This document shows, piece after piece, positions 2,648 through 35,797 of a stretch of 64,000 bases of DNA. The notes below the pieces were generated by a model that was not told the origin of the DNA, made no database searches, and saw only the letters and a list, made by a program, of their open reading frames with translations. Source of the stretch: Rhizobium sp. LC145 (GTDB lineage Bacteria; Pseudomonadota; Alphaproteobacteria; Rhizobiales; Rhizobiaceae); contig NZ_LBHV01000002.1 in the NCBI RefSeq assembly GCF_001005825.1, forward strand, positions 726,827 through 790,826, in the 5' to 3' direction. Position 1 is the stretch's first letter. Each line of letters starts with the position of its first letter. Both the position numbers and the translations under genes were made by a program.

Positions 2648-3388
2648 TTACATCGCCTCTTCGCCCGCATCCCGCAGGCGATCGCGCCGCATGTTGGCAA
2701 GGAACACTGCGCGCGAGTTGCGCATATGCCGCTCTATGACCTCGACGGCCTTGTCGGGGTCGCCCTTTTCCACCGCTTCAATCAACTCCCAGTGCTCGCT
2801 ACTCGAGCGCCGCATGTGAGCGAGTGTGAGCGGATTCTTGCGCGACAAGGCCCGCAGCCAGCCATTGTGCTGCTTCATGATCCGTACTGCCTCGACATTG
2901 AAATGCCGCTCGATAATGAAATCATGGAAGGCGAGATTGTTCTGATGGAAACTCGGATAGTCGGCCGCATCAGCCGCCGCCTGGCAGCCCTCCTGGTAAC
3001 GCCTCAAAACCGCGACATCCTCAGGTGTCGCGTATTCAACGAAAGCCCTGACGAAGTAAGGTTCCAGGAGGCCGCGGATATCGAAGATGTTCTGGACGAG
3101 GTCCTCGTTGATCAGCCGTACGCGGGCGCCGCGGTTATGCATGATGACGACGAGCCCCTCGCCTTCCAGGGCCTGCAATGCCTCACGGGCCGGGTTGGTA
3201 CTCGTTTGGTAGCGCTCGACGATTTCCGATACTTTCAGCCGCGCGCCGGCCGGGATGCGGCCCTCGAGAATATCGTCGCGAAGCAGCTGCTGCAGACGCC
3301 CGTAACCCGGCTCGCGCACCTCCCGGACCTCGGTGGCCTTGCCGCGTGCTGCGGATGACTGTCGTTGCCTGACGGCGCGCTGCTCCAT
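2648..3388 (-). CDS. GntR-family transcriptional regulator with FCD ligand domain
   Basis: The product of 246 residues starts at ATG 3388, preceded by AAGGGAGAG; a longer frame to 3454 exists but lacks such a site. A winged helix at residues 30-93 contains LKVSEIVERYQTSTNPAREA, the recognition helix region of the FadR subfamily. The helical FCD domain (about 100-225) keeps the metal-binding histidines in FHDFIIE, SSEHWELI and IERHMRNS. FCD regulators usually repress small-molecule uptake operons and release DNA on binding an organic acid or sugar acid. It sits between the solute-binding gene and the divergent hydrolase and probably controls both, through the shared 13-bp motif. The effector is unknown. 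Confidence 0.9.
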   Translation of the reverse strand: MEQRAVRQRQSSAARGKATEVREVREPGYGRLQQLLRDDILEGRIPAGARLKVSEIVERYQTSTNPAREALQALEGEGLVVIMHNRGARVRLINEDLVQNIFDIRGLLEPYFVRAFVEYATPEDVAVLRRYQEGCQAAADAADYPSFHQNNLAFHDFIIERHFNVEAVRIMKQHNGWLRALSRKNPLTLAHMRRSSSEHWELIEAVEKGDPDKAVEVIERHMRNSRAVFLANMRRDRLRDAGEEAM

Positions 3389-7875: not shown

Positions 7876-7886
7876 TGGGAGGAGCG

Positions 7887-28071: not shown

Positions 28072-28101
28072 CGGTCATGGTCCGGACCAACACCCGAGCG
28101 C

Positions 28102-30738
28102 TCACGCGGCCCGTTTTGATTCCCCCAGGCGCTTGATCGCCTGTTCGAGTGGACGCTCGCCATCACAGTAGTCCTGCCAGGCCGTGGTTTTCGCGAGCAA
28201 CGCCGGCACGGTGCGGACGGTAAACCGCTTCGGATCAAGATCGGACTTCACCTGCGTCCAGTTGAGCGGCATCGACACAGTGGCGCCGGGTCGCGCGCGA
28301 GGCGACAGCGGCGCCACGGCAGTCGCCATGCGATCGTTTCGGAGATAGTCAAGGAAGATCCGGCCACCACGAAGGCTCTTGCTCATCTTGATGAGATAAA
28401 GGTCGGGATTGTCGCGTGCCATTTGCTGGCAGACGTCATGCGCAAATCCCTTGGCCTCGGCCCAGGACAAAGGATTTCGCCTATTCACAGCGAAGGGCGT
28501 AACGACATGCAGCCCTTTGCCGCCTGTGGTCTTGCAGAAGCTGACGAGGCCGAGTGCATCGAGCCGATCGCGCATTTCCCGCGCCGCCGCAACGACCGTT
28601 GCAAACGGCATGTCGGCTCCAGGGTCGAGATCGAACACCAGACGGCCCGGCACTTCCGGCTTGCCGGGCTCGCAGTTCCACGGATGCAATTCAATACCGC
28701 CGATCTGGGCGATCGCCGCAAGCCCCTCAATCCGGTCGATCTGGAGGTAGGGCTTCTTGTCGCCGAAGACGTTCACCAGTTCAAGCAGGTTAGACGTACC
28801 GGGCATCGCATGTCGCTGGAAAAACTGCTCGCCGCCAATACCGTCCGGCGCTCGAATGATCGAGCAAGGCCGGCCCCTGATATGCTCAATGAGCCAGGCG
28901 CCGACAGCTTCATGATAGCGGGCAAGGTCCTCCTTTGTGACCGGCTCGCCATCCCCGGCGTCCGGCCAGAGTGGCTTGTCGGGACTGGAGATGAGGACGC
29001 CCATGACCTCTGCCTTCGCGCCTTTGCGACGGACAGCTTTGTGTTTGGCGGTCGCGACAGGTTCAGCGGTATCTGTCTGGGCTGGCGACGCCGGCTTCTC
29101 AGCCTCGATCTCTTCCGCCGGCTTGTCCTCGCGCAGACCCTTGAAGGCCGCCTGACGGACAAGGCCGTCAGCAGTCCAACCTTCGAATTCGATTTCGGCG
29201 ACAAGCTCGGGCTTCACCCAAACAACTTCCGCCTGCTTCTTCGGAGCACCCATGCCGGTGAACGGCGATCTCGTCGTCTCGAGCGCCTTCAGTTTTGGAA
29301 GCAGCATTTCGACTTTCTTGGCGGCGTAGCCGGTTCCGACACGGCCGACATAGACAAAGTGATCGCCGTGGTGAACGCCTACCAGGAGCGATCGGAATTT
29401 GCCGTTTGCTCTGGCATAGCCGCCGATCACCACTTCGTGGCCGGCCCGGCATTTCGATTTCGCCCATGTGTCGGTGCGCCCGGATTTATAAGGGGCATCC
29501 ATCTGCTTGGAGACGATGCCTTCGAGCGACAACTTGCAGGCGGAGCGCAGCACCGCGTCACCGCCGGTTTCGAAGTGTTCGACATAGCGGATACGCGGAT
29601 CATCGCTCCCGGCAGCGAGGAAGTCTTTGAGCCGCTTCTTCCGCTCGACCAATCGCATCGACCGCAAGTCCTCGCCGCCATAGAAGAGCAGGTCGAAGGC
29701 GAAATAGACCAGGTTGCCGGTCGTGCCTTCCGAGAGCGCGGCCTGGAGGGCTGCGAAATCGGGGGCGCCATTGTCGTCGAGGGCGCAGATTTCGCCATCA
29801 ATGACGCAATCGGGCAGTTCGGATGCAGCATCGGCGATCTCTGGATATTTCGCCGTCCAATCGAGGCCCTTGCGCGTCTTCAGCGTCACCATGCCGCCGG
29901 CGACACGCATCTGGATCCGGTACCCATCGAATTTGATCTCATGCAGCCAATCGTCACCAGCCGGCGGCCGTGAAAGCGTCTCGCATAGCTGCGGCTCGAT
30001 GAAATCCGGCAAGTCGACTGCGGTGGAGGTTGCGACGTCCTTCCGAGATCTCTTCTTACGCTCGTCAGCCGCCAGGCCATGTTTGCTGTCCCAGACCGCG
30101 TCCGCTTCGACATCCGCATTGGCCATCATGAACGGCCTCGGCTTGCGGCCCTTGCCTTCCGCGATTTGCTCCATGCTTCGGCCGGAGGCGACCGAGGTCA
30201 CGTTCTCCTCCAGGATTGCCGCGCCGTTCTTCTCCACCGAGTGGCCATCATGGTGCTTGATCAGCAGCCAGTTGGTCCGTTTGCCGCCATCGCGGTCATT
30301 GCGCATCCGTACCAGGACGAAGCTGCCCTGCAGCCGCTTGCCCTTGAGCGTGAACTTGAAGTCGCCTTTCTTCAAGGCTTCTTCCGGCGACTTCCTACCT
30401 TCCGGCTCCCAATAGCCACGATCCCACAACATCACCGTGCCTCCGCCGTACTGGCCTTTGGGGATCGTACCTTCGAAGTCGCCATAATCGAGCGGGTGAT
30501 CCTCGACCTCGACAGCGAGCCGCTTGTCATGCGGATCGAGCGATGGTCCCTTTGTCACCGCCCAGGACTTGAACACACCGTCGAGCTCGAGCCTGAAGTC
30601 ATAGTGGAGCCGTGTGGCGTCGTGCTTCTGGAGCACGAACCGCCTCTTGTTCGACGGTTTGACGTGCACCTCCCCGCTCGGTTCGCTGGTCTTCTTGAAA
30701 TCGCGCTTGGCACGGTATTTTGAAAGATTGTCGGCCAT
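28102..30738 (-). CDS. ligD: Multidomain ATP-dependent DNA ligase LigD
   Basis: The protein has 878 residues, normal for a three-domain LigD. The order is phosphoesterase (about 30-180; [16 protein letters not shown] and [10 protein letters not shown] carry its His/Asp metal site), ligase (about 225-540; the adenylated lysine is in [10 protein letters not shown]), and primase/polymerase (about 590-865; catalytic LVFDLDPG). It seals and fills double-strand breaks with Ku in non-homologous end joining; no Ku gene is in the window. [14 protein letters not shown] at 30738 is taken as start because it matches the usual N-terminus; a GTG start at 30765 is possible. It is divergent to dinB. Confidence 0.95.
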
Positions 30739-30899
30739 GATGTTCACGGACCCCGCCAGTATCACTGGGAGCGGCGCCGGCGTCTGCCTCCCAATCGTTG
30801 AAGTTCACAGGACGACAACGCCGTTGCTGGCCTGTAGTTTCGCGGGGCCTGGACCACGGGATCGGTCGAAACAGTTGATCTCGCGGCAAAGGTTGATAT

Positions 30900-30914
30900 G
30901 TTCTCTATTTGTTT
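30900..30914 (+). promoter_or_regulatory. Candidate LexA (SOS) box upstream of dinB
   Basis: GTTC-TCTATTT-GTTT matches the alphaproteobacterial LexA consensus GTTC-N7-GTTC at all but the last base. It lies 62 bases before the dinB start, the expected distance for a promoter-overlapping operator. DinB homologues are standard SOS genes. Confidence 0.6.
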
Positions 30915-30976
30915 CGGCAACGATCTCCGGATGATGCGCCGATCCCATCGCGATCGCCGAAGCCGCAGTGAACGAC

Positions 30977-32053
30977 ATGACCCAGCCTCCCATCCGGAAG
31001 ATCGTCCACGTGGACATGGACGCGTTTTATGCTTCGGTCGAGCAGCGTGACGACCCAGCCCTGCGCGGCAAACCGATTGCGGTTGGTGGGTCGGCCGCCC
31101 GCGGCGTTGTGGCGGCAGCGAGCTACGAGGCACGCGCTTTCGGCGTCCATTCGGCGATGCCATCGGTGACGGCCAAGCGAAAGTGCCCGGACCTGATTTT
31201 CGTTCCGCCGCGCTTCGACGTCTACAAGGCGGTATCCCAGCAGATCCGAGAAATCTTTGCGGAATACACGCCGCTGATCGAGCCGCTATCGCTTGACGAG
31301 GCCTATCTCGATGTCACCGAGAACCTGAAAGGCATGGAGATCGCCACCGAAATCGCATTGGAGATCCGCGCCAAGATCAAAGCGGTCACCGGCCTCAACG
31401 CGTCGGCCGGAATTTCCTACAACAAGTTCCTCGCCAAGATGGCGAGTGACCTGAACAAACCCAACGGCCAGGCCGTCATAACGCCGAAGAACGGGCCAGC
31501 CTTCGTCGAGGCCCTCCCCGTCAAGAAATTCCATGGTGTCGGTCCGGCGACTGCCGAAAGGATGCGGAAATATGGGATCGAGACCGGGCTCGATCTGAAA
31601 TCGAAGTCGCTCGCCTTCCTGCAGGAGCATTTCGGAAAGTCCGGCCCGTATTTCTACGGCATTGCCCGCGGCATCGACGACCGCCAGGTGAAGCCCAACC
31701 GGATCCGAAAGTCCGTGGGCGCGGAGGATACCTTTGTCGAAGACATCGCTGATCTCGATTTGGCCACCGCGGAACTGAAACCGCTCGCAGAAAAGGTCTG
31801 GCGCTACTGCGAGGCACAAGGCATCAGTGGCAAGACGGTGACCGTGAAAATCAAATACTCGGACTTCACCCAGGCGACGCGGAGCCGGACCGCGTCAGGC
31901 GTCTTTGCGGGCATTCCTGAAGTCCTTGCCTCGGCGTCGGACCTCTTAGCGACAGGTCTACCCCTTCAAGCGCCCAGTGCGGCTGCTCGGCGTCACGCTT
32001 TCAACGCTGACGGCCTGCGAAATCGGCGATGCCCAACCACAGTCCCAGCTTGA
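30977..32053 (+). CDS. dinB: DNA polymerase IV (Y family), C-terminus altered by frameshift
   Basis: This is a translesion polymerase. Catalytic residues are intact: VHVDMDAFYASVEQRD, and SLDEAYLDV with the second Asp and Glu; palm, fingers, thumb and little-finger domains are present to about residue 325. After ASDLLAT the frame goes to LPLQAPSAAARRH and stops at 32053. In the next frame the same bases read YPFKRPVRLLGVTLS and end QLDLGL at 32066, the expected Pol IV tail with the sliding-clamp motif (QLVLGL in E. coli). One extra base near 31951-31961 (ACAGGTCTAC instead of ACAGTCTAC) explains the shift. The polymerase core may still work but should lose clamp binding, unless the extra base is a sequencing error. 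ATG 30977 is preferred; GTG 30968 is possible. Confidence 0.85.
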   Translation: MTQPPIRKIVHVDMDAFYASVEQRDDPALRGKPIAVGGSAARGVVAAASYEARAFGVHSAMPSVTAKRKCPDLIFVPPRFDVYKAVSQQIREIFAEYTPLIEPLSLDEAYLDVTENLKGMEIATEIALEIRAKIKAVTGLNASAGISYNKFLAKMASDLNKPNGQAVITPKNGPAFVEALPVKKFHGVGPATAERMRKYGIETGLDLKSKSLAFLQEHFGKSGPYFYGIARGIDDRQVKPNRIRKSVGAEDTFVEDIADLDLATAELKPLAEKVWRYCEAQGISGKTVTVKIKYSDFTQATRSRTASGVFAGIPEVLASASDLLATGLPLQAPSAAARRHAFNADGLRNRRCPTTVPA

Positions 32054-32084
32054 TCTAGGGCTCTGACGTCCCATCTCCCCGAAA

Positions 32085-32123
32085 TAAAAAAGCCTGCCGC
32101 GGGAGGAGGTGCGGCAGGCTTTT
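32085..32123 (-). terminator. Rho-independent terminator forming the last sRNA hairpin
   Basis: A perfect 13-bp stem with a 10-base loop ends in six T on the minus strand (32091-32086). The other strand also has TTTT after the stem, so it may stop dinB transcripts from the plus strand as well. Confidence 0.8.
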
Positions 32124-32245
32124 CTAAAAGAACGAACAGCGACTTGGGAGGAGGAGTGCCGCTGTTCCCACAGACGTCCCCTTGGGAGGAGTGGGTCGTC
32201 TGAATTCGAAGCGTTGCGGGAGGAGCATCGCTTCGATGAAAACCA
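32085..32245 (-). ncRNA. Trans-acting sRNA with four CUCCUCCC (anti-Shine-Dalgarno) hairpin loops, cuckoo/CcsR-like
   Basis: Reading the minus strand, four hairpins follow one another, each with CUCCUCCC in its loop. Stem 1 CGAAGCG/CGCTTCG (32207-32235), loop at 32218-32225. Stem 2 CAGACG/CGTCTG (32171-32202), loop at 32184-32191. Stem 3 AACAGCG/CGCTGTT (32135-32166), loop at 32146-32153. Stem 4 AAAAGCCTGCCGC/GCGGCAGGCTTTT (32088-32123), loop at 32101-32108, followed by a T-run. The stems differ in sequence while loops are identical, the pattern of structural conservation around a functional loop. Such loops are known in alphaproteobacterial sRNAs (cuckoo/alpha-r14 and CcsR types) that pair with ribosome binding sites. 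The 5' end and promoter are not defined, and it may be processed into several RNAs. Confidence 0.78.
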
Positions 32246-32469
32246 TCATACTCGCGCCAGCGCTGTCCGCCAGAGTTTATGCTGCACTGCAGCCATGCAT
32301 CAGCCGCAACAGTCTTTGTCATACATGAGTTACAACCGTCATGCCCTGAAACGATCGAAGGCAGTGAGGTACTTGGTTGGAGGGTCTGCCTCAGGGTATC
32401 GGTAGATTTCGGACCTGAAATAGCTGTTTCTTCAGGTTGCTCAAGCCCGGACGGCGGATAACGGCGCAG

Positions 32470-33027
32470 TCAGCGTTGGAATCGCTCCAGCATCCTTTTC
32501 AGTTGTGCATTCTGCAGCTGAAGCTTGCGTGCCAGTTGCTCCCGGAGCAGCCGGATCTCCTCATCCAGGCTGATGGCATTGTCAGAAACGGTGGGAACCT
32601 CTGGAGAGGGCGGCGGAACGGCTTCAATCGTTGCCGCTGTCTTGCCCCGCCTGCGGCGCTTACGCGTTGCACCTCTGCCAGGCGGCGAGGTTTTTTGTGC
32701 GTTGCGAGCTGCTGTATCGGCGTCATCGGATAAGGCCGGATCAGTCGCCTCCGCGGGCCCGGCGCCGTCGATATCTGCCTTGCCATGAACACCGCTTATT
32801 TCTTCGGAATGATCCGGATCTGCTGACACCGGCTCCGATTGATCGTGAGGGACCAGTTTTTCGTCGATCGGAGGAACCGCAGCGTTCAACCCATCATCGG
32901 CGGCCGTTTCAGTGGGCTTGGCGATGGCCAACAGTTCCGGCGTCACGTCGTCGGTAGAACCGTTTTCTTGCCTCTGCTGCCGTCGCGGCGACACCAACCG
33001 GGTCAGGAACTTCCATGGAGACGCCAT
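32470..33027 (-). CDS. SyrB-like low-complexity protein with C-terminal coiled coil
   Basis: The protein has 185 residues. The middle is acidic and Ala/Pro-rich, then comes a basic patch (RKRRRRGK, about 121-128), and the last 30 residues are a leucine heptad helix (EEIRLLREQLARKLQLQNAQ). The layout of disordered region, basic patch and terminal coiled coil matches the gene at 33158, which is closer to SyrB. SyrB of Sinorhizobium acts as a negative regulator of syrM. Function here is unproven. GAGG lies 9 bases before ATG 33027. Confidence 0.6.
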   Translation of the reverse strand: MASPWKFLTRLVSPRRQQRQENGSTDDVTPELLAIAKPTETAADDGLNAAVPPIDEKLVPHDQSEPVSADPDHSEEISGVHGKADIDGAGPAEATDPALSDDADTAARNAQKTSPPGRGATRKRRRRGKTAATIEAVPPPSPEVPTVSDNAISLDEEIRLLREQLARKLQLQNAQLKRMLERFQR

Positions 33028-33157: not shown

Positions 33158-33562
33158 TCAACCGAGGTTGAGTCGCTTTCTCAGATCGGCATTTTCAGCA
33201 CGGAGCTTCTCGGCCAGTTGCTTGCGCAGTCTTTGGTTTTCCTCTTCCAGCTGCAGAAGATCCGCAAACTCGTCAACTGCCGCCACCGACGGTGCGGTCG
33301 CTGTCTGCACAGCCTTCGGAGCACGTTTGACAGGCGCACGTCTGGCGCTTGTCGCACCTTCGTCGGACTTTGCCTTGCGTCCTCTCCTCTGCTTTCCAGC
33401 TGCGGCCTTCGAAGCCGCCGCCGGTTGCGCCGAAACATCGGCTGAGGCCGCTTCAGGCGCCGCCTTCTTCTTGGCGCGAGGCTTGCGTTCCTTCTTTGGT
33501 ACATCGGGCGCCGCTGCAGGCGACGCGCCAGCATCAGTCATCGTATTGTTTTCGTCGGCCAT
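33158..33562 (-). CDS. SyrB-like regulator
   Basis: The protein has 134 residues from ATG 33562 (MADENNTMTD), which is preceded by AGGAG at good distance. An in-frame ATG at 33736 or 33823 would extend it, but the MADE start is the usual one for SyrB-like proteins. It has Lys/Arg-Ala-Pro rich tracts (KKERKPRAKKKA, KQRRGRKAK), and the C-terminus (QLEEENQRLRKQLAEKLRAE, then NADLRKRLNLG) is the SyrB family hallmark coiled coil. It probably forms oligomers and contacts nucleic acid through its basic tracts. It is a tandem partner of the gene at 32470. Confidence 0.65.
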   Translation of the reverse strand: MADENNTMTDAGASPAAAPDVPKKERKPRAKKKAAPEAASADVSAQPAAASKAAAGKQRRGRKAKSDEGATSARRAPVKRAPKAVQTATAPSVAAVDEFADLLQLEEENQRLRKQLAEKLRAENADLRKRLNLG

Positions 33563-34237
33563 TTTGGTCTCCTGTAAAGCCGATGCATTTGTCTCCTGCT
33601 CAATCGGCTGTGTCAACATCGCCTCGGCCTGATCTTCTTCAGGGAAAGACATCCCGCTGCTGCGAATCTGAGAAGCTTCTGGCCAAAATGGCGTTGCCTC
33701 GTCCTGCAGATCTTGTGCAACGGATTTGAGATCCATGTCTCCCCAGATCGAGTTCGGGTTTGAATTGAGTTTCCGTCGACCAGATCGGTATTCGACGGCA
33801 AAACTGCGCTGGACTTTTTTCACTTTGAGAGACCTTGGGCACCTGTGGTGATGGTTTCGGCGATATTTTCAGCATCGCAACATGCCTGCAAATATATACT
33901 ACTGCGCCGTCGGTCTAGAGCCTCGGCGATACTCGGCCCTCACCGCGCGAGCCCACGTCGCCGCGCCTGCTGGCTCGTCCGACTAAGTCCAGCCTTGGCC
34001 AAATGCCATTCAGCCGCTTATCGCCCTGAGTACACAAATCCCGGACCAACTCGATCCCCATTGTGGATAGGCCATGACTGCTTGTTGGGATTGCTTTTGC
34101 AGTTGAAGGGTACGAACTGTCGACCCTGCTACTCCACAGTCGTGCGCCTTGAACGGATATGAACCTACGATCCGCTTTGCGAATTGAGCTAAGTATCTGA
34201 TTGAAAATTAAATCTGCAGTGCGGAGCGCAACGTGGC
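33563..34237. other. Intergenic region upstream of the SyrB-like gene
   Basis: No gene is supported. Bases 33563-33823 could encode an N-terminal extension of the SyrB-like protein. The stretch 34100-34200 contains pieces resembling a tRNA T-arm and D-arm on the minus strand, but they do not fold into a full cloverleaf. This may be an old integration scar at the left edge of the defence island. Confidence 0.4.
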
Positions 34238-34729
34238 CTATCTCGAGAAGCGGATGAGCCGACGGCGGATTTCGCCTGATGGCAAGCGGCACCGGGGGTG
34301 ATTTGCTAAGCGACTAAGGCCGGAATGCAAATGCTCGAACTGCACATGGCTGCCATCGGCGAACTGATCAATCACCCACAGCACACCGTGCATTTCAAGC
34401 CTCTCGGCAGTCGCAAGCTCTCGAAGCACTCCGTCACCCGTAAGCAGTCCCCAACCCCGAGTTTGCGCTAGCACGAATGCAAACGTGTCAGGAGCAGAGA
34501 GGCGAGCGTGGGCACGGTTGACCTCGGTGGCCCTGCGAACCTCAGCAGACGTCAGAGGTTCTACCCTTAAGCCGAGTCGCACGAGCGTCTGTCCCATTTC
34601 GCCGACCAATTCCCGTTCATATAGCAGGTCAGGGACGGCGAACTCGAACGGCAAAAGAAACATGAACTCGAGAAGGCCGGCCCTTTCCAGGTCAATTAAG
34701 ACTGAGGTATCGGAAATCAGAATCGCCAT
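34238..34729 (-). CDS. PIN-domain protein (putative ribonuclease partner of ImmA/IrrE gene)
   Basis: The protein has 163 residues. MAILISDTSVLIDLERAGLL is a PIN start with the first Asp pair; further acidic residues are in LSAPDTFAFVLAQ and LLTGDGVLRELA, giving the usual four-acid metal site. PIN proteins are RNases, often toxins. The gene starts 3 bases after the stop of the XRE-ImmA/IrrE gene, so the two are translationally linked. The tail after residue 130 is poorly conserved. Confidence 0.75.
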   Translation of the reverse strand: MAILISDTSVLIDLERAGLLEFMFLLPFEFAVPDLLYERELVGEMGQTLVRLGLRVEPLTSAEVRRATEVNRAHARLSAPDTFAFVLAQTRGWGLLTGDGVLRELATAERLEMHGVLWVIDQFADGSHVQFEHLHSGLSRLANHPRCRLPSGEIRRRLIRFSR

Positions 34730-34732
34730 GCG

Positions 34733-35797
34733 TCAGACTGCCGTCTGGTCCAGGCGTTTGTCGAGTTCGCGAACGGAAATACCGAGCATTTCAGCGGCAC
34801 GGGACTCGCCCAATATGCCCTCAACCAAAGCACGATAGCATAAACGCTCGAACCTTTTAGGTTCCTCAAGTTCGGGAGCCATGCTCTCTGGCTCTTCGTA
34901 AGGATAGTGCCGCCACCCTCTCTCTTCGAAAACTTTGAACAGTCGTGAACATGCCGCCTGGCTGATAATTCCCAGATCTTTGCACCGATAAGCGAGTGCC
35001 TGAACACTTACCCCGAACCTTTTCTTTAGCGCGACAAGCTCGCCAACACTTATAGACGACCGATGAGCACCGGCTTCTGCTCGCAAGACGTCGGCTGGCA
35101 TCAGAAAAGCACCGGCGAAGCGATGAGCTGCTTTTTCCACGTCGACTCCCTCGGCTGGTGCAATCACCATATGTCCAAGTTCGTGTGCCAGGTTGAACCG
35201 CTTACGCTCTGACCACGTTCCCCGCTTGATAACAATTACTCGAGCGGCGTCGCGGTCCTTGCGACGAACCCTCGCCGCTAAACCGTCGACGTCGTTCAAG
35301 TCCATCGAGAGGACCTTTATTCCTCGTTCCTCTAATAGCTCGGCTAGCTGCGGGATAGGGTCGTTTCCAAGTCCCCAATCATCACGGACCGAGCGTGCTG
35401 CATCTTCCGCATCGCGAATGTCTGAAACTGGATATGGCGCGCTTCGCGGTTGCTCCCATTCGACACTGCGCAAGTGAAGAAGGTCCTCGATCACAAGATA
35501 TCGCTCGAGCATATGGATGGCTCGCGCCTGGACTGCAGCTTCCTCTTTGGAAGACGTTCCGAGCTTTTTTCTGAAGTCCACGCCTTCGAGGGATAGCTGA
35601 TCTTCACTTAGAATGAATTCCTCGGACACACCCAAAGCTTTGGCCAAAGCTATCAAAGCTTTGGAGCCGGGCATATCTTCATTTCGCTCATACTTGCCGA
35701 TCGCCTGCGCTGACACCACGCCATTCATTGCATCCGCTAATGCCCTCAATGACAGCCCAGCCGCTTGCCGTGCGACCTTCAATTTGTTGCCGATCAT
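34733..35797 (-). CDS. XRE-family regulator fused to ImmA/IrrE metallopeptidase
   Basis: The protein has 354 residues. The helix-turn-helix is at 5-60 (LSLRALADAMNGVVSAQAIG). The ImmA/IrrE (DUF955) domain covers about 165-270 with the zinc motif HELGH at 205-209. A second small helical region ends with ESRAAEMLGISVRELDKRLD. Such proteins repress their own operon and are inactivated or act by proteolysis after DNA damage or phage signals, as ImmA cleaves ImmR. Upstream is a 36-bp palindromic region. Together with the PIN gene it looks like a toxin-antitoxin type module. Confidence 0.88.
   Translation of the reverse strand: MIGNKLKVARQAAGLSLRALADAMNGVVSAQAIGKYERNEDMPGSKALIALAKALGVSEEFILSEDQLSLEGVDFRKKLGTSSKEEAAVQARAIHMLERYLVIEDLLHLRSVEWEQPRSAPYPVSDIRDAEDAARSVRDDWGLGNDPIPQLAELLEERGIKVLSMDLNDVDGLAARVRRKDRDAARVIVIKRGTWSERKRFNLAHELGHMVIAPAEGVDVEKAAHRFAGAFLMPADVLRAEAGAHRSSISVGELVALKKRFGVSVQALAYRCKDLGIISQAACSRLFKVFEERGWRHYPYEEPESMAPELEEPKRFERLCYRALVEGILGESRAAEMLGISVRELDKRLDQTAV

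What the first reader, a model, noticed from the sequence alone, without database searches (positions are those of the whole stretch)
32085..32245. Quadruple CUCCUCCC hairpin sRNA locus
Four consecutive hairpins on the minus strand have unrelated stems but the same 8-base loop CUCCUCCC, the last one being an intrinsic terminator. Identical loops on diverged, compensated stems argue for function. Loops of this kind are known in alphaproteobacterial anti-Shine-Dalgarno sRNAs, but four in one short locus is notable. The TRAP operon in this window has the exact complement GGGAGGAG as its ribosome site (7877-7884), so a target could be local.
Basis: partly seen in the sequence, partly recalled or inferred. 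Interest (0 to 1): 0.8.

Follow-up and report, generated by a model that had tools for sequence, protein, structure and literature searches.

The report
Four-loop rhizobial regulatory RNA
This stretch is the counterpart of a small RNA already published from the root-nodule bacterium Sinorhizobium meliloti; its four hairpins carry the same eight letters, which are predicted to cover the ribosome sites of nutrient-uptake genes, and such four-hairpin genes are ordinary in this bacterial family.

Summary
In detail: four minus-strand hairpins with unrelated stems each carry CUCCUCCC in or at the loop, and the last is the terminator. Rfam calls three of them ar14 (96 bits, cut-off 58.8); the fourth lies just upstream, inside the same predicted 155-nt RNA (32238-32084). 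Four-loop loci occur in 20 of 29 fully listed genomes of the genus. Of 111 loci selected on hairpin 4 alone, 88 keep all loops exact. The stems co-vary (26 of 38 pairs changed on both sides, above all controls). Added here: 104 of 118 four-loop loci carry the published LsrB/VtlR box GCAT-N3-TG-N3-T (0.34 expected), and 15 of 36 genes behind a GGGAGGAG ribosome site are ABC/TRAP transporter parts, against 0 of 22 and 2 of 15 in controls. The window's TRAP gene is one of about 58 such sites, so nothing singles out a local target. No RNA or pairing was measured in this organism.

The parts
32286..32298 (-). LsrB/VtlR-type box GCATGGCTGCAGT (published consensus GCAT-N3-TG-N3-T), about -60 to -48 from the predicted start
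   Evidence: Sequence; consensus and position in PabcR1 (-61 to -49) from PMC8844928, consensus also PMC7486931; exact box in 104 of 118 four-loop arrays, 0.34 expected
32245..32250 (-). predicted -10 element TATGAT
   Evidence: Aligned by eye with the other upstream stretches and with TATAGT upstream of SmelA099; the consensus promoter scan found none
32084..32238 (-). predicted sRNA, about 155 nt, ortholog of S. meliloti SmelA099 (160 nt)
   Evidence: SmelA099 ends 1328334/1328175 from PMC2873474, mapped by eye on the sequence read
32206..32236 (-). hairpin 1, loop motif 32225-32218; outside the Rfam ar14 match
32171..32202 (-). hairpin 2, loop motif 32191-32184
32134..32167 (-). hairpin 3, loop motif 32153-32146
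32088..32123 (-). hairpin 4, loop motif 32108-32101, intrinsic terminator
   Evidence: exact 28-base core in at least 119 stretches of other genomes, scan cut at its limit
32085..32207 (-). Rfam RF02344 (ar14) match, model 1-123, 96 bits
30968..32053 (+). DNA polymerase IV gene, convergent neighbour shared with SmelA099
   Evidence: Pfam IMS families; blastn 30995-32240 at 72% to the SmelA099 region of pSymA
7877..7884 (+). GGGAGGAG before the DctQ (TRAP small permease) start ATG 7887; a possible target, one of about 58 sites in the genome

Best explanation
The minus-strand locus is the ortholog of the four-hairpin small RNA SmelA099 of Sinorhizobium meliloti and a member of the ar14 family; it is likely transcribed from an LsrB-type promoter as one RNA of about 155 nt whose four CUCCUCCC loops would pair with G-rich ribosome-binding sites and block translation, predicted mainly of ABC and TRAP uptake-transporter mRNAs. 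Shown here: the four hairpins, the ar14 match, the neighbour and terminator shared with SmelA099, the covariation, the box, and the over-representation of transporter genes behind GGGAGGAG. Taken from papers: SmelA099 is transcribed; LsrB activates and NtrC represses the three-hairpin relative NfeR1; NfeR1's loops act redundantly on transporter mRNAs. Inferred: transcription, LsrB control and target pairing in this organism. Why four loops rather than three is inferred too: most simply, more independent pairing sites per transcript.
For: ar14 at 96 bits, cut-off 58.8. SmelA099 on pSymA (L207) has four CTCCTCCC hairpins, the identical terminator hairpin, the box GCATGGCTGGGTT, and DNA polymerase IV beside it; it was detected as a 160-nt RNA (PMC2873474, table passage). 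Covariation on 51 of 120 four-loop arrays: 94.7% of cells paired, 26 of 38 pairs and 179 cells changed on both sides (shuffles 15.8 and 49.3, 0 of 500 reach; slid versions at most 15 pairs and 56 cells). Of 111 distinct loci selected on hairpin 4 only, 88 keep loops 1-3 exact and 97 keep all three within two mismatches. Exact LsrB/VtlR box in 104 of 118 four-loop arrays. The own genome has a LysR-type gene beside two ar15 (AbcR-type) RNAs, the first with the same box, GCATAGCTGTTGT. ABC/TRAP parts: 15 of 36 ORFs behind GGGAGGAG-N2-9-ATG, against 0 of 22 (GAAAGGAG) and 2 of 15 (AAAGGAGG); Fisher p 0.0004, 0.06, and 0.0006 against the 34 distinct pooled controls.
Against: No expression or pairing data for this organism. 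S. meliloti has six NfeR1-type copies and only one is reliably seen on Northern blots (PMC7143759), so this copy may be weakly expressed. The promoter scan found none. One motif base of hairpin 1 and two of hairpin 2 are paired in the predicted fold, and hairpin 2 is the least consistent helix (82.5-84.5% of cells paired). The transporter excess could reflect ribosome-site habits of such genes without any sRNA; against the strong Shine-Dalgarno control AAAGGAGG it is only p = 0.06, and that control also holds an exporter that was not counted (L346). The arrays in the box count include close relatives, so they are not independent.
Confidence: 0.82

Rival explanations
1. The loops are a decoy: CUCCUCCC mimics the 3' end of 16S rRNA or binds an RNA-binding protein, so the RNA titrates a factor rather than silencing particular mRNAs.
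For: The motif is an anti-Shine-Dalgarno sequence (PMC3927594); four repeated exposed copies look like a multivalent sponge.
Against: NfeR1, with the same loops, silences specific mRNAs and its loops are redundant (PMC7143759 passage). Genes with the complementary site are over-represented for ABC/TRAP parts in this genome.
Confidence: 0.1
2. The hairpins are the 3' untranslated region of the upstream ORF (32470-33027), and the RNA is a processing product with no promoter of its own, as recalled for the CcaF1-CcsR operon of Rhodobacter.
For: The upstream ORF lies on the same strand and ends about 230 bases before hairpin 1.
Against: An exact box at a nearly fixed distance from hairpin 1 in 104 of 118 four-loop arrays, although only 29 of 150 other loci compared share sequence with the window beyond the RNA; SmelA099's 5' end sits just downstream of the corresponding -10; CcsR1 model not met.
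Confidence: 0.06
3. A silent copy: one of five ar14 loci in the genome, intact by descent but not transcribed.
For: Five ar14 copies in the genome; in S. meliloti only one of six NfeR1-type copies is readily seen (PMC7143759).
Against: Box, loops and paired stems are all intact, and the syntenic ortholog in another genus is detected as RNA.
Confidence: 0.08

Closest known systems
SmelA099 / smrA6 / SMa6570, S. meliloti pSymA (RFMSmelA099, four-hairpin family model)
   Same: Four CUCCUCCC hairpins, identical terminator hairpin, LsrB-type box upstream, convergent DNA polymerase IV neighbour
   Different: Stems of hairpins 1-3 differ in sequence; predicted length 155 instead of 160 nt; loops 1 and 2 are shorter here
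NfeR1 / Smr14C2 / SmelC397 (ar14, Rfam RF02344)
   Same: Same loop motif, compensated stems, LsrB site upstream
   Different: Three hairpins instead of four; 31 of 42 three-loop arrays here lack the exact GCAT-N3-TG-N3-T box
CcsR1-4 of Rhodobacter sphaeroides (RF02791)
   Same: Hairpins with a CCUCCUCCC loop
   Different: Two hairpins; transcribed behind a small-protein gene (recalled); model score 23.2 below the cut-off 65.3
AbcR1/AbcR2 (ar15, RF02345)
   Same: For AbcR1 the LsrB box; anti-Shine-Dalgarno motifs, uptake-gene targets
   Different: Different family model; Hfq-binding; separate loci in this genome

Membership tests
ar14 / cuckoo RNA (RF02344) | Covariance model score over the curated cut-off | tested here: met
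   96 bits, cut-off 58.8, model 1-123 complete
ar14 / cuckoo RNA (RF02344) | Consecutive hairpins with CCUCCUCCC-type loops and freely changing, compensated stems | tested here: met
ar14 / cuckoo RNA (RF02344) | Last hairpin is the intrinsic terminator | tested here: met
   32123-32088 ending in a run of six U
ar14 / cuckoo RNA (RF02344) | LsrB-type site upstream of the promoter | tested here: met
   GCATGGCTGCAGT at 32298-32286; by sequence only, binding not tested
ar14 / cuckoo RNA (RF02344) | Trans-silencing of mRNAs by pairing at the ribosome site | not testable with these tools
   Only the over-representation of transporter genes behind GGGAGGAG was computed
SmelA099 four-hairpin subclass | Four hairpins with the loop motif | tested here: met
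SmelA099 four-hairpin subclass | Shared genomic neighbour (ortholog, not only paralog) | tested here: met
   DNA polymerase IV beside both; blastn 30995-32240 at 72%
SmelA099 four-hairpin subclass | Single transcript of about 160 nt | not testable with these tools
   No RNA data for this organism
CcsR1 (RF02791) | Covariance model score over the curated cut-off | tested here: not met
   23.2 bits against 65.3
CcsR1 (RF02791) | Lies behind a small DUF1127 (CcaF1-type) gene (feature recalled) | tested here: not met
   Nearest upstream ORF 32470-33027 is 185 aa with no Pfam family at E 0.001
ar7 (RF02342) | Covariance model score over the curated cut-off | tested here: not met
   47.2 bits against 60; the genome's ar7 is elsewhere
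AbcR / ar15 (RF02345) | Covariance model match | tested here: not met
   Three ar15 loci in the genome, none in the window

The most novel reading that the evidence does not exclude
Four-loop ar14 RNAs form a second arm of the LsrB/VtlR redox regulon beside AbcR1: the same regulator box, kept more strictly than in the three-loop NfeR1 class, fires a four-barrelled anti-ribosome RNA that shuts down ABC and TRAP uptake systems together, and the number of loops is set by recombination between the identical loops.
Probability: 0.45. Interest if true: 0.45.

Novelty: already known. Interest (0 to 1): 0.3.

Why it matters
It settles a striking pattern as the ortholog of a published but little-studied RNA, and adds two testable points that I did not see in the passages read: an LsrB/VtlR box at a nearly fixed place before most four-loop loci, and an excess of ABC/TRAP transporter genes among start sites complementary to the loops. 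Together they predict that redox-sensing LsrB reshapes nutrient uptake through several anti-ribosome RNAs at once.

Tried and rejected
Membership in CcsR1 and ar7: below the curated cut-offs. The other Rfam hits at E up to 10 are all below their cut-offs. Local target by conservation: the TRAP DctQ has no close ortholog in 56 other genomes of the genus, so the test could not be made. The window's other motif sites: 58575 and 58818 are single motifs 243 bases apart, and 55474 is a GGGAGGAG on the plus strand with no ATG within nine bases. Agrobacterium VrsA was considered as a relative because its promoter has the VtlR box, but it is reported as about 300 nt and antisense to a gene (PMC7486931 passages), so no link is claimed. 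The ORFs that overlap the RNA (31993-32322 minus, 32109-32405 plus) were not taken as genes: constant loops and compensated stems explain the sequence. The consensus promoter scan found nothing.

Rows dropped before counts: 2 of 120 four-loop arrays with fewer than 150 bases upstream; 69 of 120 four-loop arrays at 86% identity or more to one kept, so rests on 51, all with exact loops by selection, 2 sites too near a contig edge and exact duplicates, 22 ORFs under 100 aa and 1 duplicate of 59 GGGAGGAG loci (60 matches, two overlapping pairs), and 20 short, 1 duplicate and 1 without a readable start of 44 GAAAGGAG loci, 30 of 33 AAAGGAGG sites read, 14 short and 1 duplicate. Three genes are in both control sets. 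Of the 42 three-loop arrays, two are of the C31 small-ORF type rather than ar14. One search lists matches in full only for G000-G028; 20 of 29 was counted by eye. The box shuffles are plain letter shuffles of the same 65 bases.

Full report
What is there. The minus strand carries four CTCCTCCC motifs at 32225-32218, 32191-32184, 32153-32146 and 32108-32101, each in its own hairpin: 32236-32206, 32202-32171, 32167-32134 and 32123-32088. The four stems have unrelated sequences. The last hairpin ends in a run of six U and is the terminator. The stretch folds at -77.5 kcal/mol, z = -5.2. In the predicted fold all eight motif bases are free in hairpins 3 and 4, seven in hairpin 1 and six in hairpin 2.

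Is it chance? The window as a whole has 8 motif matches against 2.59 expected, which 1 of 100 shuffles reached, so the motif count alone is weak evidence. The tandem arrangement is not chance: in the own genome the two-motif pattern has 14 matches and the reversed pattern none, and the three-motif pattern occurs in 57 of 57 genomes of the genus with none for the reversed pattern.

Family. Rfam assigns 32085-32207 to ar14 (RF02344) with 96 bits, cut-off 58.8. That match covers hairpins 2-4; hairpin 1 lies just upstream. The genome holds five ar14 loci: three with three loops and two with four, the second four-loop copy at C12:571862-571991.

Known already. PMC3927594 (section 2.7 read in full; other passages) describes two S. 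[quoted passage not shown] PMC2873474 (passages) lists SmelA099 as a 160-nt RNA at 1328334-1328175 of pSymA. I read that stretch: it has four CTCCTCCC hairpins, the same terminator hairpin, the box GCATGGCTGGGTT upstream, and the same convergent neighbour, DNA polymerase IV (window ORF 30968-32053, Pfam IMS; blastn 30995-32240 at 72%). So the window locus is the ortholog of SmelA099, not merely a look-alike. A Sinorhizobium plasmid (L209) shares 28072-32422 at 87%; in all, 29 of 150 other loci compared share sequence with the window beyond the RNA itself.

How common. Among G000-G028, whose matches are listed in full, 20 of 29 genomes have at least one four-loop array (counted by eye from overlapping triples). 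The exact terminator core was found in at least 119 stretches of other genomes, the scan being cut at its limit; the 80 titles shown are of Rhizobium, Agrobacterium, Shinella, Neorhizobium, Ciceribacter, Ensifer and other Rhizobiales. Of 111 distinct loci selected only on hairpin 4, 88 have loops 1-3 exact and 97 have each of the three within two mismatches; of the other 14, 11 lack only a recognisable loop 1. One five-loop array exists, L169.

On 51 of 120 four-loop arrays (below 86% identity), 94.7% of cells of the consensus structure pair, 26 of 38 pairs and 179 cells show changes on both sides; shuffles give 15.8 pairs and 49.3 cells with 0 of 500 reaching the observed, and slid versions reach at most 15 pairs and 56 cells. 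All seven pairs that never vary are in the terminator. Hairpin 2 is the least consistent helix, 82.5-84.5% of cells paired. Loops in that alignment are exact by selection, so loop constancy rests, where 9 of 97 four-hairpin loci have one loop changed. The stems co-vary and the loops hardly vary: the refutation fails.

Promoter. Upstream of hairpin 1 the window has GCATGGCTGCAGT (32298-32286), an exact match to the LsrB/VtlR consensus GCAT-N3-TG-N3-T given in PMC8844928 and PMC7486931 (passages), about -60 to -48 from the predicted start; in the AbcR1 promoter it is at -61 to -49. The exact box occurs in 104 of 118 four-loop arrays, mostly 75-77 bases before loop 1, against 0.34 expected from letter shuffles, and in 11 of 42 three-loop arrays (0.13 expected). 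The arrays include close relatives and are not independent. The 14 four-loop arrays without an exact box all have a version with one mismatch at that place, by eye. The own genome has a LysR-type gene directly beside two ar15 (AbcR-type) RNAs, the first with the same box, GCATAGCTGTTGT. For the three-hairpin NfeR1, LsrB activates and NtrC represses transcription (PMC10746234, passages). LsrB control of the window RNA is inferred. Three papers in the library searched name SmelA099; the passages I saw in them do not mention LsrB for it.

Targets. GGGAGGAG followed by ATG after 2-9 bases gives 60 matches, 58 sites, in the own genome, reversed control 12. From 59 loci read, 36 distinct ORFs of at least 100 aa start there; 15 of 36 are ABC or TRAP transporter parts by Pfam: ten binding proteins (L228, L229, L231, L238, L287, L293, L295, L304, L308, L312), the DctQ of the window (L234), one binding-protein-dependent permease (L310) and three ATPases whose direction Pfam does not tell (L224, L225, L285). 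Control ribosome sites: GAAAGGAG gives 0 of 22. AAAGGAGG gives 2 of 15, plus one small exporter that was not counted (30 of 33 sites read). Fisher p is 0.0004 and 0.06 respectively, and 0.0006 against the 34 distinct pooled controls. This agrees with the transporter targets of NfeR1 (PMC7143759) but does not show pairing, and transporter genes may prefer such sites for other reasons.

Mechanism. Most likely the RNA is made from an LsrB-type promoter, ends at hairpin 4, and each exposed loop can pair with a G-rich ribosome site, so one RNA can silence several uptake mRNAs or act redundantly on one. The hairpins are supported by covariation; ortholog transcription and the relatives' function come from papers; transcription, control and pairing in this organism are inferred.

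How the number of loops changes. L145 and L098, both R. leguminosarum, differ as if a deletion had joined loop 1 to loop 2, leaving three loops. Identical loops would favour such recombination; this is a suggestion from one pair.

Verdict. Real, correctly read, and already known as a kind and as an ortholog. Interest is modest; the promoter box and the transporter-gene excess are the useful additions.

Noticed in passing
L080:2852-3022 and 3027-3104 (G000:C31:48026-48103): A 57-aa arginine-rich ORF is followed directly by three CUCCUCCC motifs, an arrangement like CcaF1-CcsR of Rhodobacter (resemblance to DUF1127 recalled; no Pfam hit).
   Followed up: partly
L169, minus strand, array of five: One locus has five CUCCUCCC motifs; the extra one lies unpaired just before the first hairpin in the predicted fold.
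   Followed up: partly
L145 and L098: A three-loop array looks like a four-loop array with the stretch between loops 1 and 2 deleted, leaving arms of two different stems side by side.
   Followed up: partly
G000:C12:571846-571991, minus strand (L002): A second four-loop copy in the same genome, with different stems in hairpins 1 and 2 and its own LsrB-type box.
   Followed up: partly
window 32470-33027 and 33158-33823, minus strand: Two neighbouring ORFs end in similar coiled-coil-looking tails (by eye); neither has a Pfam family at E 0.001.
   Followed up: partly
window 34238-34729 and 34733-35797, minus strand: Adjacent ORFs that look like a PIN-domain protein and a helix-turn-helix plus metallopeptidase regulator (by eye, not scanned).
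   Followed up: no
window 30968-32053, plus strand: The last stretch of the DNA polymerase IV ORF does not read like the usual C-terminus, as if the frame had shifted (by eye).
   Followed up: no
L204:423-1325 and 1440-1452: LysR-type gene beside two ar15 RNAs, the first with the box GCATAGCTGTTGT: by position the LsrB-AbcR locus of this genome.
   Followed up: yes
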